Virus record (IMG/VR): IMGVR_UViG_3300027135_000004
Coordinates: 1-47,989 of that record
Length of the DNA stretch: 47,989 nt
Source of the DNA: a virus
Reading direction: 5' to 3' (one strand)
Shown here piece by piece: positions 2,434 to 8,756 of the stretch. The translations under genes were made by a program, and so were the position numbers. Each line of letters begins with the position of its first letter. The stretch's first letter is position 1. The notes under the pieces were generated by a model. It made no database searches. It was not told the DNA's origin and worked only from the letters and a program-made list of their open reading frames with translations.

Positions 2434-5094
2434 TTAGAAGGTTGCCTGACCAAGAGATCCTCTAGTATTAGCAGATTTTGCCAAAGCATAGTTGACCTGA
2501 CGACCATCAAGATTGACTGCGATACCACCATTTGCCATCATTGTGGTCAATGTATCGATCTTTTGAGCAACAAGTTCAAGACCTTGTTTGATTTCTTTTG
2601 TTTCATTACTTTTGTTAGCAGACGTTACTGCCGATACTGCGGCTAGAGCAGCTACATTACCAAGTTCTATTTTTGGTAGTTCTATACCACTTAGTTCTTT
2701 TAATGATGAAACTGCGGCTCTAATACCAGATGCTGATATTGCTAACAAACTCAATTGTGTTGTTACTCTGGTCAATTCTCTGGTTGGGAACAATATCAAA
2801 GCAGCACCTAGTATTCCTAGTGATGCTGATAGTGCTCCAACACCAGCAGCTGCCACGATTAACAATGGAGACACCAATGCCAACTTAACAAGTGGGCCGG
2901 CAACTCCACCAACTACAGCTGGAAGTTGTTTGAATATGTCCAACATGGTTTTGAATGCCGTTGTAATAACACCTGCAACAATATTTCCCAATCCTAGAAT
3001 TACCCCACCAATTATACCAAGCGATGGTGTTACCATTTGTATAGCTTTAGCAAATCCAATTGCTGCAAGTGATGTTACAGCCAAGGCTCCAGCAAAAATC
3101 AACAAACCAGCACCAAGTGGTGAAGGTGGTGTCATCAATCCTGCAATTATAGCTAGTCCAGCACCAAGTATTACTAAAGCGGCAGTAAATGCTAGTATTT
3201 GTGTTGCACTGGTTTGTCCAAGCATACTCATAGCATATCCTAATCCCATGGCTGCTCCAGTGATCAACACCAACAATACTGCCAACTTTGCCATGTCACT
3301 CCACTTGAGTCCACCAACAGCAGTTCCTAAAGAAGTAATACCTCTTGATATACCTTCAAGACCCTTACCGAGACCTTCACCAGCGACTTGAGCAGCTTTG
3401 CCAAACATATTACCCAAGAACTCCAACACCTTGGTCAATCCGAACTTAAGTGTGTAGAACGCTACTAATACAGTTCCAACACCCACTGTGATTGCAATCA
3501 ATACTTGTGACCAAGAAGCTTTGAATGAAAGTATAGCAGCTATAGCATTAAAGAATGCCGTTTGAACCGACATTATTATTGCGTATACTGGTTGAAGTAA
3601 CTTACCAAGATTCAACAATGCTTGTTCTTTTGCTTGTGCCAATTTTTGAGATTCAGCTTCAGCAGTCTTTTGTCTCAACATCAACTCAAGTTCTGCTTTA
3701 CGTGCATCAGCTCCTTTTTTCTCAAGAGATCTCAATTCCTCTTGAGCTTTCTTCATTTTCTTTGCTTCTTCTGGAAACAATCGTTCTGCTTCCAATAAGT
3801 TTTTCTTTTGAGTCTGAATCTTTTGTAGTTCAGAAAAATCTTTACCAGTAGCTTCAGCAAGTGCTTTACGTTGGTTGTAATTCAACTTGTCGAGATCACC
3901 GACACGTTCAATTTCTTTTTGTAACGCTTTTTCAGCACCAATCAAATCACCAGCAAATGCCAATCTACGTGATTCATTGAAACTCAAATTTTGACCCAAC
4001 AAAGCAGCTGCTTTTAGTTCGGCTCCAATTGATGACTCAAAATTCAATAATGCTTCGGCTGATTTTGCAGCTGCATCCAAACTAGTTCCAAGTTTTCTTG
4101 CTTCTGCGGCTTGTTTGATCAACTCAGTAGTGTTACCCTTGAAAATAGTTCTAACAGCACTGCTTGCGTTAGCCACATCTTTCATCACTTGACCCATTGG
4201 AACACCAGCAGCTTCGGCAGCCTTAGCAGCAATTACAGTCATTGCTTCTTGAGCCATTACTGATGTTCCTCCTACTTCGGCAAGTGTAGTTTGGAACTTG
4301 GTTGCTTCATCTACTGACAAACCAGTCAAACGACTTATATTGGCTGACTCTTTACCGATTGTTGCCAATTGAGTGTCAGTCAATGCGTATTCTTTTCTAA
4401 TAGCAGTTACAGCTTTTAAAATCTCTTGGTTGGTTGCAAAATTTGAACTTAATTCACCAGTGATCTTTTGGATAGTATCATACTGTCTGTTTATTTCATC
4501 CTTGGTAGTTCCTTGTGCTTTAGCTTGTTCACTCAATAAAGCATCATACTTTTCACCAAGAGAAATTATGGTTGAATATACAGCACTAATTACTTCAAGT
4601 GTGTTTTTTTGTTTTTCTAAGTTCTTGAGTTGTTGATCTGTTGTATACTTCAGATTGAGTGCTTCAAAGTATATTCTTTGATACTCTTCATATGATCCCT
4701 CTAAAGAAGTTCTCTGTTTTTCTAAGTATGAAAGACGTTCTTGTTCGGATCTTGTCAAATTGTTTCTATCACCATTTTCTTTCTGTTGAAGTTGTTGCAT
4801 TTCTTCAAGTTGAGCGGTGATATTAAATAATTGATTGCGAGCCTTGTCCATTGTAGCCGCATATCCAGCAGATTGGTTTTTTAGTGCTTCATATCGAGCT
4901 GCCATTTGTGACAGAGTTTTGTCCATCAAAATAGCTGGATCTACAACACTTTGCATCTTTTTTCCAAGTTCATCGGCGTTTTTTGCCAACGACCCTAGTT
5001 TTTTCATACCCTCATTAAGTTCTTTATTGAACTTGGTAGCTGCATTATCAAGTTCACTTCTGAGGTTGCGGAGGTCTGCTGTATAATCTGCCAT
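2434..5094 (-). CDS. Tail tape measure protein
   Basis: An 886-aa protein that would set tail length and leave the tail with the DNA. Residues 1-200 and 400-510 are heptad-rich, charged coiled coil (many Lys, Glu, Gln). About residues 530-780 are strongly hydrophobic with several Ala/Gly/Leu membrane-like stretches, the usual layout of tape measures. Motifs near residues 375-430 (LAFAGDLIGAEKAL, NYNQRKALAEATG) recall other phage tape-measure-like proteins. At the usual rule of about 0.15 nm per residue the tail would be near 130 nm. The gene follows a gp26-type gene and a start-less short frame, the normal place for tail assembly chaperones. Its antisense frames on the plus strand are shadows. 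Confidence 0.85.
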   Translation of the reverse strand: MADYTADLRNLRSELDNAATKFNKELNEGMKKLGSLAKNADELGKKMQSVVDPAILMDKTLSQMAARYEALKNQSAGYAATMDKARNQLFNITAQLEEMQQLQQKENGDRNNLTRSEQERLSYLEKQRTSLEGSYEEYQRIYFEALNLKYTTDQQLKNLEKQKNTLEVISAVYSTIISLGEKYDALLSEQAKAQGTTKDEINRQYDTIQKITGELSSNFATNQEILKAVTAIRKEYALTDTQLATIGKESANISRLTGLSVDEATKFQTTLAEVGGTSVMAQEAMTVIAAKAAEAAGVPMGQVMKDVANASSAVRTIFKGNTTELIKQAAEARKLGTSLDAAAKSAEALLNFESSIGAELKAAALLGQNLSFNESRRLAFAGDLIGAEKALQKEIERVGDLDKLNYNQRKALAEATGKDFSELQKIQTQKKNLLEAERLFPEEAKKMKKAQEELRSLEKKGADARKAELELMLRQKTAEAESQKLAQAKEQALLNLGKLLQPVYAIIMSVQTAFFNAIAAILSFKASWSQVLIAITVGVGTVLVAFYTLKFGLTKVLEFLGNMFGKAAQVAGEGLGKGLEGISRGITSLGTAVGGLKWSDMAKLAVLLVLITGAAMGLGYAMSMLGQTSATQILAFTAALVILGAGLAIIAGLMTPPSPLGAGLLIFAGALAVTSLAAIGFAKAIQMVTPSLGIIGGVILGLGNIVAGVITTAFKTMLDIFKQLPAVVGGVAGPLVKLALVSPLLIVAAAGVGALSASLGILGAALILFPTRELTRVTTQLSLLAISASGIRAAVSSLKELSGIELPKIELGNVAALAAVSAVTSANKSNETKEIKQGLELVAQKIDTLTTMMANGGIAVNLDGRQVNYALAKSANTRGSLGQATF

Positions 5095-5108
5095 ATGTCA
5101 ATTATACT

Positions 5109-5116
5109 AATAAATA
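5109..5116 (-). promoter_or_regulatory. TATTTATT leader element
   Basis: One-base variant, 14 nt before the tape measure ATG. Confidence 0.4.
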
Positions 5117-5121
5117 TCTAG

Positions 5122-5361
5122 TTATCTGAAACTAGGTCTATCTATTTTGCCTGACTTTGGCTGACTTGAAGACTGCTTTTGTGATTCTGCTTCTTTTTCC
5201 TTGGCTTCTATGAGTTTTTTATAATAGAAGTTACGAAGATATACAGGCAGATTGTATATCTCTGTTGGGAAGAATCCTCCGTTACCATAATAACAGAGGT
5301 CGAATATAACTTGTTGTATGTAAACCTTATACTCTTGAGTCAGGCCAAAAAAACTGGACAG
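5122..5361 (-). CDS. Start-less 79-codon frame, probable frameshift extension of the upstream gp26-like gene
   Basis: This minus frame runs from just after a TGA (5362-5364) to a TAA at 5122-5124 and has no ATG, GTG or TTG codon that could start it. The translation is protein-like: FFGLTQEYKVYIQQVIFDL, then CYYGNGGFFPTEIYNLPVYL and RNFYYKKLIEAKEKEAE, with a polar tail ending DRPSFR. It overlaps the 3' end of the 267-aa gene in another frame, and a run of seven T (5347-5353) lies in the overlap. A +1 or -2 slip on that run joins the 267-aa protein to this frame. In many tailed phages the two products just before the tape measure are tail assembly chaperones joined by a programmed frameshift; Mu uses -2. 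An assembly error of one base in the T run would also fuse the frames. Confidence 0.7.
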   Translation of the reverse strand: MSSFFGLTQEYKVYIQQVIFDLCYYGNGGFFPTEIYNLPVYLRNFYYKKLIEAKEKEAESQKQSSSQPKSGKIDRPSFR

Positions 5362-6130
5362 TCATTGGCACTGCTGCCCTTTCTTCGGCACCGCATTCTT
5401 TACAACTGAACTCAAACGTTGCATCGATATCAGGTGTAATTTCTTTGATGTATTGACGTAGTGCAAGACTGTCACGACTTTGCATATTATCAATTAGAGA
5501 CTTTAGTTTTGCTGGTTCGGTTTCACCATCAAATTCAATAACAGACTTCTTTAAACGTGAAGTAACCTCAGCTGATGACTTGTTGTTTAACTTGGCAAGT
5601 GCCGCAGTTTCACGTTCGATATCCTTTTCATCACTGTCAGTCATCAGCTTGAACTTGACTACTGATTTTGAGTATGGAAGTGTGAACTCAAACACATTTG
5701 TGCCTGGTTCATACTTTGTTTCATCAAGTTCCTTTTCCTTGATTTCACTCAAATTGATATTGAGACGATTGCTTGCTTGACACTTAGGACACGTAATATC
5801 TACTGGACCATAATTGTCACCGTAAGCAATACGACGAACCGCAAAGATAACCGCATTCTTATCACCAATCAAAAGGTCACTTGACTTGATGTTCTTGTCT
5901 ACGATCAGTGACTCCAACAACTTGTCGATTGCCAATCCTTTCTTGAGAAGATTTGGACTGGTGAGAATATCTTCTTCCTTGGCAGTCATCATCTTTATTT
6001 CAATAGTTCCCTTTGCGAGAGGACTATTGGGTGGATAGAAATGACCTTTACTAGGAAGATCAATAGTTTCTGTTGGAAACGTAGTTTGTTGCTTGTTTGC
6101 CACTCTTTGTAAAACGATTTCGTCACTCAT
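5327..6130 (-). CDS. T4 gp26/gp51-type baseplate assembly or tail chaperone protein
   Basis: A 267-aa protein with the features of the T4 baseplate-protein family: an N-terminal segment ETIDLPSKGHFYPP, then MTAKEEDILTSPNLLKKG at residues 48-65 and LAIDKLLESLIV. Two Cys pairs, C114-P-K-C117 and C243-K-E-C246, could form a zinc ribbon. In T4, gp26 belongs to the baseplate hub genes. Its position just before the tape measure, and the frameshift-like overlap at its 3' end, also suit a tail assembly chaperone that binds the tape measure. The zero-frame protein ends VQFFWPDSRV. The start is the ATG at 6130; there is no clear Shine-Dalgarno sequence. Confidence 0.75.
   Translation of the reverse strand: MSDEIVLQRVANKQQTTFPTETIDLPSKGHFYPPNSPLAKGTIEIKMMTAKEEDILTSPNLLKKGLAIDKLLESLIVDKNIKSSDLLIGDKNAVIFAVRRIAYGDNYGPVDITCPKCQASNRLNINLSEIKEKELDETKYEPGTNVFEFTLPYSKSVVKFKLMTDSDEKDIERETAALAKLNNKSSAEVTSRLKKSVIEFDGETEPAKLKSLIDNMQSRDSLALRQYIKEITPDIDATFEFSCKECGAEERAAVPMTVQFFWPDSRV
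5347..5353 (-). other. T7 homopolymer, candidate slippery site
   Basis: On the coding strand the zero frame reads CAG TTT TTT TGG CCT and reaches a stop 7 codons after the TTT pair. Skipping one T, or slipping back two, gives TTT TTT GGC CTG and opens the 79-codon frame. A -1 slip hits TGA two codons later, so only +1 or -2 is productive. Confidence 0.6.
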
Positions 6131-6175: not shown

Positions 6176-6967
6176 TTATTTTGGCTTGATCTTCTTTTGA
6201 GCGTCTTGTGCAGCTTTTGTTAAAATACCGGCTCTCACATTAATTTTAGCAATTGCGTCCTTAAACTTGGATTCTGGTCCAACCAAAGCATCCATAAACC
6301 CATTGTCTTCGGTCATTATTTTTTTGATCAATGCTTTGATTTTTCTTCTTTTGATTTCGTCCATAGATTTCTTCTTGGTTAATATGTTATAAATACTTTT
6401 GACTACTCCAGTTTTTACGCCTGGATAATTTGTCTGGAAATTCTGAACGTCTCCGTTTGCCAAATCTTGTCTCAATGTGCTGGCACTAATACTTTGTCCG
6501 TTTTTTTCATCGGTTCTACCTTGATAGTTTGTTGGAGCATCGTCAGTCATTTCGATCACCGACACATTCTGTGGTGCTGTTGAACCGTCTTTTGTTGGTT
6601 TGGTTTTATAACGATCAACTGCTGCTTTGAATATCTTGCTACGTTTAGCATCTTCTGGACTCTTGGAACTGGCTGCCAATGCGATGGTTTCATTACTATC
6701 TTTTGGTAGATTGAAAACATATCCAAATGCTGCGTTCATAGGACTGTCATCGTTGACCGGCACAACCTCTACCTTGGGGTTTGTAGGCAATAGGTTCCAT
6801 ATTGCTACACTCTGTTGACGGTTAACTCCATCACGTTCACTTGGTCCTACCATCACAATTACTTTACCAACATCACTTCGACTTGCAAATTTGTTGGCTA
6901 ATCCAAGATGCCCAGCATGAGGTGGTTTGAATCCACCGGGTAGTAGCACAGTTACTTTATTGTCCAT
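6176..6967 (-). CDS. Nucleotidylyltransferase of the HxGH superfamily (NMNAT/PPAT-like)
   Basis: A 263-aa protein with a Rossmann-type nucleotidyltransferase core. The ATP-binding motif is GGFKPPHAGH, with H17-x-G19-H20, and a later SISASTLR (about residues 160-167) matches the family's ISSTxxR motif. These enzymes transfer NMP from an NTP to substrates such as NMN, pantetheine phosphate or phosphocholine; the substrate here cannot be read from sequence. The last 70 residues form a basic helical tail (KRRKIKALIKKIM). It sits among tail genes, between the tail tube and the gp26-like gene, and lacks the N-terminal leader of the proposed capsid cargo. A terminator separates it from the upstream tube gene, and a TATTTATT element lies 3 nt before its ATG. 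Confidence 0.75.
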   Translation of the reverse strand: MDNKVTVLLPGGFKPPHAGHLGLANKFASRSDVGKVIVMVGPSERDGVNRQQSVAIWNLLPTNPKVEVVPVNDDSPMNAAFGYVFNLPKDSNETIALAASSKSPEDAKRSKIFKAAVDRYKTKPTKDGSTAPQNVSVIEMTDDAPTNYQGRTDEKNGQSISASTLRQDLANGDVQNFQTNYPGVKTGVVKSIYNILTKKKSMDEIKRRKIKALIKKIMTEDNGFMDALVGPESKFKDAIAKINVRAGILTKAAQDAQKKIKPK

Positions 6968-7042: not shown

Positions 7043-7534
7043 TTAGTATTGGAGGATGCAGTAGTCTGGTTGAACAGTCAAGTTGATCTTCATTGCTTCA
7101 CCATCGTTTGACCAGTCTAGTGAGTTGAACGTTGCTTCGGTGATGAACGAACCCTTGAGTGTCCATTCTTCTACTTTGTCACCAACTGGACCTAGAACGT
7201 TGATGGTCAAATCCTTCTTATAGAAGTCTTGGTAACCGTCACGACCAGTTACAGATTCATGGTGCAAACGAACCCATTCCATTACAGCTTGGGCACCAGA
7301 AGGAACGATTGGGTCATACAATTCTAGTGTTACTTGACCCCAGATGCTCTTACCCTTGTAAAAGGTTCTGATGTTGATATGATCAAGCTCCTTAGCTGCT
7401 TGTGTTAGTTTTGGACGGTCTGTCTTCTTGATAATGAATGAAGGAACGCCGTCGCAATACATGATAAAGCGGTTTTGAACCTTTGGCTCAAATGCTGTGT
7501 AAAAAATTTCTGATGGATTTAGTAATTCTGCCAT
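7043..7534 (-). CDS. Tail tube protein (gp19-like)
   Basis: A 163-aa protein, the same size as T4 gp19, which stacks as hexamers to form the inner tube of the contractile tail. The pattern is typical of the T4 gp19 family: NRFIMYCDGVPSFIIKKTDR near the N-terminus, a central VTLELYDPIVPSGAQAVMEW, and the C-terminal beta-strand segment FNSLDWSNDGEAMKINLTVQ. It has a clear AAAGGAA Shine-Dalgarno site 7 nt before the ATG and its own terminator, consistent with very high expression. In T4 the tube gene follows the sheath gene; here they are 31 kb apart. Confidence 0.92.
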   Translation of the reverse strand: MAELLNPSEIFYTAFEPKVQNRFIMYCDGVPSFIIKKTDRPKLTQAAKELDHINIRTFYKGKSIWGQVTLELYDPIVPSGAQAVMEWVRLHHESVTGRDGYQDFYKKDLTINVLGPVGDKVEEWTLKGSFITEATFNSLDWSNDGEAMKINLTVQPDYCILQY

Positions 7535-7595: not shown

Positions 7596-8756
7596 TTATA
7601 ATTTGTTGAGATCTTTATCAACAAGATTTGTGATGTTTATTCTCAACTTACTTATGAATCCACTGGCTCTCAAAAGTTTGAATACAAGGTTTTCGGTGCT
7701 GTATTCTCCTCCCGAGCTTAAACCAGCTTCACGCATTTTATAGATACGTTGAACCAAGTCTTTCAATGTATCTAAATCTTGTTGTTCGACCGCTTTGTTT
7801 ATCTTGGTCACCAAGTCTTTGTATTTGGTCTTTATAGCGTCTTTGTCGATCTTAACGTCTTCATACGAGGGTTTTTTTATCCACTTGTTATGAAGGATAC
7901 TATAAACAGCTTGGCTACGGTTTACATCGTTAATGTCTTGTATATAAACTTCTACTGGATGATTGTCAACACTGATATCATGTTGTTCGTTCCATTTATT
8001 TTTGTAACCGTCAACTAGTTTTTTGACCAGTTCTTTGTTTTCATCAACCTTTGAGAAGTCAATCAAAACGTGTAGATCAATATCACTGGTTGGAGTCCAA
8101 TTATAACCAGCCGTGCTTCCTAAAAAGTATATGTCCTCAATTGGGGCAGTCAACTCAGTGTCTTTGTAAAAAGTGGTAGCTATTTTTAACAACTGACTGA
8201 GAACTTCTGGTTTTAAAGTTTCACCGTCCCAAATTTCTGGGTTCAAAATGCTGTTGTATATTCTGTATGACTCTTTGACACCCAACGTTTCTTTGAGTTT
8301 GTTGATAGTGTCTGTTGCGTTTTTGTGAAGTATACCAATGCCACCAGCCTGAATAAACTCATTGACGTTATCTTCACGGTCATCGATCAATATTGAATCT
8401 GGTGTAGCAAATTTAGCTTTGTCTTCTCTTTCGGGAACCAAGTTTTGTTTGAGTGTCACATTGTGATCCGACAACCACTTTTCTTTACCTTGTTTACACT
8501 CGGCATCAGTTGCATGACTTAGTATTTCCGTTGGAAATTCTTTGATAAAATTGTAGAGAATCTTACCATCATTCATCCAAGGCATGGTTGCATAAAAATT
8601 TGGACTGTTTTTATGAACCAACTCGTATCTTTTTTCTTTACCGTGTTCTGACTCGTATGTTTCTACTGGAACTCCAAACAATCTTTCAAACTGTTTTTCC
8701 CAGTCTGTCAGAACTCCATCCATATCAACGTAAATTTTGTATTTGCTTTGAACCAT
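7596..8756 (-). CDS. Fusion of a HAD 5'(3')-nucleotidase-like domain and a Pol-beta-type nucleotidyltransferase
   Basis: A 386-aa two-domain protein. Residues 1-155 look like a HAD hydrolase of the 5'(3')-deoxyribonucleotidase type: D11-x-D13-G-V-L-T-D at the start, a Ser/Thr region near ILSHATD, and LIDDREDN at about residues 123-130. Residues 180-386 carry G213-S214 and S-D225-I-D227-L-H, the metal-binding signature of Pol-beta superfamily nucleotidyltransferases, and a later HPVEVYIQD that may supply the third carboxylate. Likely roles are dephosphorylation of nucleotides or phosphorylated ends, and NMP transfer; the substrates are unknown. It has no capsid-type leader. It is placed between the tail tube and small unknown genes, with TATTTATT 6 nt before its ATG. 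I do not know a named family with this fusion. Confidence 0.75.
   Translation of the reverse strand: MVQSKYKIYVDMDGVLTDWEKQFERLFGVPVETYESEHGKEKRYELVHKNSPNFYATMPWMNDGKILYNFIKEFPTEILSHATDAECKQGKEKWLSDHNVTLKQNLVPEREDKAKFATPDSILIDDREDNVNEFIQAGGIGILHKNATDTINKLKETLGVKESYRIYNSILNPEIWDGETLKPEVLSQLLKIATTFYKDTELTAPIEDIYFLGSTAGYNWTPTSDIDLHVLIDFSKVDENKELVKKLVDGYKNKWNEQHDISVDNHPVEVYIQDINDVNRSQAVYSILHNKWIKKPSYEDVKIDKDAIKTKYKDLVTKINKAVEQQDLDTLKDLVQRIYKMREAGLSSGGEYSTENLVFKLLRASGFISKLRINITNLVDKDLNKL

What the first reader, a model, noticed from the sequence alone, without database searches (positions are those of the whole stretch)
5122..5361. Start-less frame before the tape measure implies a +1 or -2 programmed frameshift
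A 79-codon protein-like frame has no ATG, GTG or TTG start, overlaps the end of the gp26-like gene, and shares a seven-T run (5347-5353) with it. Only a +1 or -2 shift there joins the two; -1 meets a stop at once. Frameshifted tail assembly chaperone pairs directly upstream of the tape measure are known in many phages, usually -1, with -2 in Mu. A gp26-type zinc protein in that role in a T4-like phage would be unusual and would suggest that this T4 family is itself a tail chaperone.
Basis: partly seen in the sequence, partly recalled or inferred. Interest (0 to 1): 0.78.

Follow-up and report, generated by a model that had tools for sequence, protein, structure and literature searches.

The report
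A +1 frameshift in tail-chaperone gene
The start-less reading frame before the tape-measure gene is the conserved second half of a tail-assembly chaperone that ribosomes most likely reach by slipping forward one base; the chaperone itself is a known T4 family, but using a +1 slip where its known relatives use -1 or a duplicated gene appears to be a new variation.

Summary
On the minus strand a 79-codon frame (5122-5361) with no ATG, GTG or TTG overlaps the end of a gp26-like gene (PF12322) at seven T (5347-5353), between the tail tube and tape-measure genes. Four independent contigs are identical there over 500 bases, so an assembly indel is unlikely. All 80 close relatives keep the overlap, always in the +1 register, with no shared start codon. 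Sites such as TTCTTTTGG and TTCTTTCGT leave no re-pairing for -2, so the shift is +1: tRNA-Phe (or Leu) slips from TTT/CTT onto TTT/TTC. The extension is under protein-level selection (pN/pS 0.14; 1.4-1.8 in wrong frames) and predicted to fold as helices. Fifty-eight of 58 classifiable relatives in a sister clade are also +1. Cyanophage-type relatives instead have -1 (U UUU UUC, 78 of 78), and their annotated 'gp51' is this extension. T4 gp51 is a gp26 paralogue carrying it in frame. That T4-like phages encode such chaperones, by gene duplication or a -1 slip, is already published (Vladimirov 2022, seen only through citing papers). What seems new is the +1 decoding and the change of direction at one homologous Phe-Phe site. 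No product has been observed.

The parts
5327..6130 (-). gp26-like gene, short chaperone form (TAC-N), 267 aa, two CxxC pairs
   Evidence: PF12322 E 2.5e-20; phrog_150 E 3.7e-22; AlphaFold2 model pLDDT 85, Foldseek hits are baseplate hub / hub assembly chaperone proteins
5345..5353 (-). +1 slip site TTTTTTTGG (frame 0: TTT TTT TGG; after the slip: TTT GGC)
   Evidence: TTTTTTTGGCCT in 42, TTCTTTTGGCCT in 4 and TTTCTTTGGCCT in 1 of 47 distinct sequences (that scan used a pattern for the site, while inspected all 80 relatives without one)
5327..5347 (-). frame-0 tail after the slip site: W P D S R V stop
   Evidence: frame-0 stop follows within a few codons in all relatives
5125..5346 (-). +1-frame extension, 74 codons from GGC, stop 5122-5124; C-terminal part of the long form (TAC-NC)
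   Evidence: no ATG/GTG/TTG in this frame; pN/pS 0.14 against 1.36 and 1.82 in other registers; predicted helical hairpin, pLDDT above 90 in the core
5125..6130 (-). inferred fused product, 335 aa, made if one T of the run is skipped
   Evidence: translation kept as P0001; product not observed
5780..5791 (-). first CxxC pair (CPKC, residues 114-117)
   Evidence: sequence; alignment A1; weak zinc-ribbon matches below Pfam cut-offs
5393..5404 (-). second CxxC pair (CKEC, residues 243-246), about 13 residues before the slip
   Evidence: sequence; alignment A1
5356..5371 (-). position of an upstream hairpin (GTACCG ATGA CGGTAC in relatives), degenerate in the window (3 of 6 pairs)
   Evidence: mean 4.56 of 6 pairs against 2.73 +- 0.13 with resampled synonymous codons, not corrected for relatedness; role unknown
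2434..5094 (-). tape-measure protein, 886 aa, directly downstream of the extension
   Evidence: phrog_167 E 3.2e-5; gene order
7043..7534 (-). tail tube protein upstream
   Evidence: phrog_4542 E 1.3e-23

Best explanation
The locus encodes both forms of a tail assembly chaperone of the T4 gp26/gp51 family. Most ribosomes read the gp26-like frame and stop six codons after the second Phe codon (short form, G or TAC-N). A minority stall with tRNA-Phe on UUU in the P site and UGG waiting in the A site; the tRNA slips one base forward onto UUU, GGC is decoded next, and about 74 extra residues are added (long form, GT or TAC-NC). By analogy with lambda, many short copies and few long copies would coat the tape measure, and the extension would recruit tube subunits. 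Shown here: conserved overlap, slip site, register, absence of a start, coding selection, gene order, family membership. Inferred: that slippage occurs, its efficiency, the ratio, and the binding roles.
For: Conserved +1 overlap in all 80 first relatives; 47 distinct sites; 58 of 58 classifiable sister-clade sequences +1, with sites TTT CTT TGG (27), TTT TTT TGG (27), TTT CTA TGG (3), TTT CTT TAC (1), read without presupposing the site. Phages SP-15, LIS04, RM378, BRock, GXN1, immuto, Mel-JY01 and the uncultured huge phage LR756508 all have a TTT followed by T or C where +1 re-pairing is possible. pN/pS 0.14 in the +1 frame, 1.36 and 1.82 in the wrong registers. No conserved start codon. Order tube, gp26, extension, tape measure in the window and annotated isolates. 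Extension profile matches the -1-type extension (E 3.7e-8; column-shuffled maximum score 15.2 against 42.6), which matches T4-type gp51 C-terminus (E 2.5e-10). T4 gp26 and gp51 both PF12322. Shift types cluster on the gp26 tree, 6 changes against a shuffled mean of 20.2.
Against: No protein, ribosome-profiling or reporter evidence. No Shine-Dalgarno-like or downstream stimulator identified; the upstream hairpin is degenerate in the window itself. The direct match of the +1 extension to T4 gp51 C-terminus is weak (E 0.006); the link runs through intermediates. The structural match of the gp26 model to a solved chaperone (HK97 gp13, 2ob9) is the highest-probability PDB hit but not significant (probability 0.33, E 1.5). 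The sequences counted are related, so the counts are not independent events.
Confidence: 0.88

Rival explanations
1. A -2 shift at the T run, as in phage Mu, gives a fusion with one more Phe.
For: Seven T in the window and most relatives permit -2 re-pairing.
Against: TTCTTTTGG relatives, TTC TTT CGT in GXN1 and CTG TTT CGC in BRock do not let tRNA-Phe re-pair two bases back, yet keep the same register.
Confidence: 0.05
2. Transcriptional slippage on the seven-T run makes mRNA with a changed number of U.
For: A homopolymer is present in many members.
Against: Ten of 47 distinct sequences have only four T (TTCTTTTGG), and about half of the sister clade has TTTCTTTGG, with the same register.
Confidence: 0.03
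3. The second frame is a separate gene that starts at a non-standard codon or by re-initiation after the gp26 stop.
For: L105, L110 and L088 have an ATG-started version; some -1-type phages (nt-1, Mendera) have TAATG or TGATG overlaps.
Against: The window frame holds no ATG/GTG/TTG at all; in relatives the candidate starts are scattered; conservation begins at the slip site, upstream of any start.
Confidence: 0.05
4. Sequencing or assembly error: six or eight T in reality and one continuous gene.
For: Homopolymers are error-prone.
Against: Four independent contigs identical over 500 bases; over 100 related sequences with the same register, including isolates sequenced separately and sites without a long homopolymer.
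Confidence: 0.01

Closest known systems
T4 gp26/gp51 tail assembly chaperones (Vladimirov, Gautam and Davidson 2022, Virology 566:9-15; cited in PMC10885494 and PMC12846349)
   Same: Same family (PF12322, phrog_150); a short form and a long form with a C-terminal extension.
   Different: T4 has two genes: gp51 is a gp26 paralogue with the extension fused in frame. The window has one gene and a +1 frame overlap.
-1 frameshift TAC genes of T4-like phages such as cyanophages (U UUU UUC)
   Same: Same gp26 family, same place in the gene, homologous extension.
   Different: Opposite direction: heptamer U UUU UUC and frame-0 stop one codon later in 78 of 78 cyanophage-type sequences, against UUU followed by U or C (mostly UUU UGG) and +1 in the window clade.
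Lambda gpG/gpGT and relatives (-1); HSTV-2 (very likely +1); Mu (-2)
   Different: No sequence relation was tested; lambda is -1 and Mu -2. HSTV-2 is a haloarchaeal myovirus for which PMC5009743 calls +1 very likely.
+1 sites of bacterial prfB (CUU UGA) and influenza PA-X (UUU CGU)
   Same: P-site CUU/UUU slipping to UUU/UUC; immuto clade has CUU U, GXN1 has UUU CGU.
   Different: A-site is UGG or another sense codon, not a stop as in prfB; no internal Shine-Dalgarno found.

Membership tests
PF12322 T4_baseplate (T4 gp26/gp51 family) | Match to the curated profile above its cut-off | tested here: met
   73.6 bits against 24.5, E 2.5e-20
T4-type gp51 (long chaperone form) | C-terminal extension homologous to that of T4 gp51 | tested here: inconclusive
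   Direct E 0.006; through the -1-type extension E 3.7e-8 and then 2.5e-10
Tail assembly chaperone with programmed frameshift (lambda G/GT kind) | Gene between tail tube and tape-measure genes | tested here: met
   Tube 7043-7534, TMP 2434-5094; same order in immuto, SP-15, BRock
[quoted passage not shown]
Tail assembly chaperone with programmed frameshift (lambda G/GT kind) | Fusion product made, in minority | not testable with these tools
   Needs mass spectrometry or a reporter assay
Tail assembly chaperone with programmed frameshift (lambda G/GT kind) | TAC fold (e.g. HK97 gp13, 2OB9) | tested here: inconclusive
   2ob9_B is the highest-probability PDB hit (0.33) but E 1.5
Tail assembly chaperone with programmed frameshift (lambda G/GT kind) | Binds tape measure and tube; absent from the virion | not testable with these tools
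   Needs experiment
-1 frameshift (X XXY YYZ heptamer) | Second frame lies at -1 | tested here: not met
   -1 stops at once in the window
Mu-type -2 frameshift | P-site tRNA can re-pair two bases back in all members | tested here: not met
   TTCTTTTGG, TTCTTTCGT and CTGTTTCGC members
prfB-type +1 frameshift | Upstream Shine-Dalgarno and stop codon in the A site | tested here: not met
   A-site UGG, not a stop; no SD-like motif at the needed spacing by inspection only

The most novel reading that the evidence does not exclude
Within one chaperone family the decoding direction has changed between -1 and +1 at the same Phe-Phe site of homologous genes, so that three ways of making the same two-protein pair coexist: -1 slip (cyanophages), +1 slip (window lineage, hundreds of environmental contigs and several isolates), and gene duplication (T4), plus a separate ATG-started second gene in a few.
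Probability: 0.78. Interest if true: 0.66.

Novelty: new variant of a known kind. Interest (0 to 1): 0.55.

Why it matters
Known frameshifted tail chaperones are mostly -1. A large, easily sampled lineage of T4-related phages that does it by +1 at UUU UGG / CUU UGG, without an evident stimulator, gives a natural comparison for how +1 slippage works in bacteria and how direction can switch in evolution while the protein product is kept. It also corrects annotation: the small 'gp51' of cyanophages and 'hypothetical protein' calls between gp26 and tape measure are C-terminal pieces of a fused protein.

Tried and rejected
Sequence error, -2, transcriptional slippage and independent start (see rivals). 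Alignment of all gp26 proteins as a database query failed for lack of conserved stretches. PDB sequence search found no solved relative of the gp26 profile or of T4 gp51. Bacterial genome scan with SP-15 gp26 found no relative. Narrow extension profile against cyanophage extension was weak (E 0.007) until diverse members were added. Extension model against viral structures gave no match below E 0.001. The Virology 2022 paper is not held, so whether it mentions +1 members is unknown.

Full report
On the minus strand the gp26-like ORF (5327-6130) ends CAG TTT TTT TGG CCT GAC TCA AGA GTA TAA, and the frame one base forward (5122-5361) is open for 79 codons with no ATG, GTG or TTG. The seven-T run is at 5347-5353. 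Only 55 of 20,000 dinucleotide-preserving shuffles stay open in that frame. The window is a 47,989-base virus record with tail tube (7043-7534), a cytidylyltransferase-like gene, gp26, the extension and tape measure in that order.

It is not an error. Four contigs from other samples are identical to the window over 500 bases around the site. Eighty loci fetched with the gp26 protein all keep an open +1 frame across the gp26 end, and none uses -1, which stops at once. A pattern scan of everything fetched by then gave 47 distinct sites: TTTTTTTGGCCT in 42, TTCTTTTGGCCT in 4 and TTTCTTTGGCCT in 1; the +1 frames share no start codon. That scan and the codon table used a pattern for the site, so the uniformity of the second Phe codon there is partly by construction; searches are free of that.

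The frame is coding. In the extension beyond the overlap, median pN/pS is 0.14 over 137 pairs, against 1.36 and 1.82 when the same DNA is read in the other registers. AlphaFold2 gives the extension as a helical hairpin (mean pLDDT 81, above 90 in the core) and gp26 as a confident domain (pLDDT 85) whose viral structure matches are baseplate hub and hub assembly chaperone proteins. The best-probability PDB match is the HK97 tail assembly chaperone 2ob9, but at E 1.5 and probability 0.33 it is only suggestive. In Leptospira phage LE4 the gp26 model hits A0A343LED6 and the extension model hits A0A343LED7; the accessions are consecutive, as expected for neighbouring genes, though both the adjacency and the extension match (E 0.24) are unproven.

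The direction is +1. In every +1-type member a TTT (or CTT) in the P site can re-pair one base forward because T or C follows: TTT TGG, CTT TGG, TTT CTA, TTT CGT, TTT CAC, TTT CGC; LIS04 (TTT TTT AGT) fits if the first TTT slips. Two bases back, TTCTTTTGG, TTCTTTCGT and CTGTTTCGC give no Phe pairing, so -2 is unlikely. In the immuto clade, 58 of 58 classifiable distinct sequences were +1 (TTT CTT TGG 27, TTT TTT TGG 27, TTT CTA TGG 3, TTT CTT TAC 1). Half of these lack a long homopolymer, which also speaks against transcriptional slippage.

The wider family explains what it is. Phages SP-15, LIS04, RM378, BRock, GXN1, immuto, Mel-JY01 and LR756508 have the same arrangement. From the coordinates and the frames, the small hypothetical CDS annotated just after gp26 in immuto, Mel-JY01, SP-15, RM378 and BRock lies in the +1 frame and is a piece of the extension. 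Cyanophage S-RIM8, Aeromonas 65.2, SRB7757, Atu_ph07, RAS14, XacN1 and L094 have the extension at -1. Among 78 distinct cyanophage-type sequences all have U UUU UUC with the frame-0 stop one codon later, and what is annotated as gp51 in cyanophages is that extension. T4 gp26 and gp51 are both PF12322 (E 9e-64 and 4e-52); phrog_150 is matched to position 235 by gp26 and to 280 by gp51, so gp51 is gp26 plus the extension. The -1 extension profile matches T4-type gp51 C-termini at E 2.5e-10, and the +1 profile matches the -1 profile at E 3.7e-8 (score 42.6; best of 40 column shuffles 15.2); the direct +1 to gp51 match is weak, E 0.006. On the gp26 tree the T4 gp26 and gp51 clades are sisters (95/89) inside a -1 clade, and shift type needs 6 changes against 20.2 for shuffled labels. 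In L105, L110 and L088 the second part has its own ATG.

Prior knowledge. A 2016 review states that G-GT frameshifting is conserved in long-tailed phages except T4, and that the archaeal myovirus HSTV-2 very likely uses +1 (PMC5009743). Vladimirov, Gautam and Davidson 2022 identified the T4-like chaperones; papers citing it say that some T4-like phages carry a short and a long fused gene (PMC10885494) and that polyT -1 signals occur in TAC-N genes of T4-like phages (PMC12846349). The paper itself is not held. So the chaperone identity and probably the -1 form are known; I found no mention of +1 in this family in the held library, but most subscription papers are missing from it.

A possible stimulator: upstream of the site many relatives have GTACCG ATGA CGGTAC, with the rare Thr codon ACG (10% elsewhere) in 39 of 42 Thr positions, and 4.56 of 6 stem pairs against 2.73 +- 0.13 expected from synonymous resampling (not corrected for relatedness). 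It is degenerate in the window and absent in L111, L112 and Mel-JY01, so it is not required.

Verdict: a programmed +1 frameshift producing the long form of a T4-family tail assembly chaperone, confidence 0.88 for the arrangement and mechanism as inferred from sequence. Shown: arrangement, conservation, coding, register, homology. Inferred: slippage in vivo, its rate, and the roles of the two products.

Noticed in passing
L119:4232-4369, L204:2223-2396, L205:2289-2381: Cyanophage 'gp51 baseplate hub assembly catalyst' annotations of 30-57 aa are C-terminal pieces of a -1 frameshift extension of gp26; the heptamer U UUU UUC is exact in 78 of 78 distinct relatives.
   Followed up: yes
L092:3803-4429 and 4480-5229: T4 gp26 and gp51 are paralogues, gp51 carrying the extension in frame; sister clades on the gp26 tree.
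   Followed up: yes
window 5356-5371 and same place in relatives: Upstream hairpin GTACCG ATGA CGGTAC and strong preference for the rare codon ACG just 5' of the slip site; degenerate in the window.
   Followed up: partly
L105, L110, L088: Relatives in which the second chaperone part has its own ATG in another register.
   Followed up: partly
L092:6349-6882 (T4 gene 28): T4 gp26 matches phrog_1140, the family of T4 gp28, at E 9e-4; a distant relation of gp28 to the gp26 family is possible.
   Followed up: no
window 7596-8756: ORF joining a 5'-3' deoxyribonucleotidase-like domain and a nucleotidyltransferase-like domain (phrog_2643 and phrog_36119).
   Followed up: no
window 6176-6967: Cytidylyltransferase-like gene lies between tail tube and chaperone genes.
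   Followed up: no
window 5393-5404 and 5780-5791: Two CxxC pairs in the gp26-like protein, as for zinc; the Cys residues are absent in immuto (L081) and L111.
   Followed up: no
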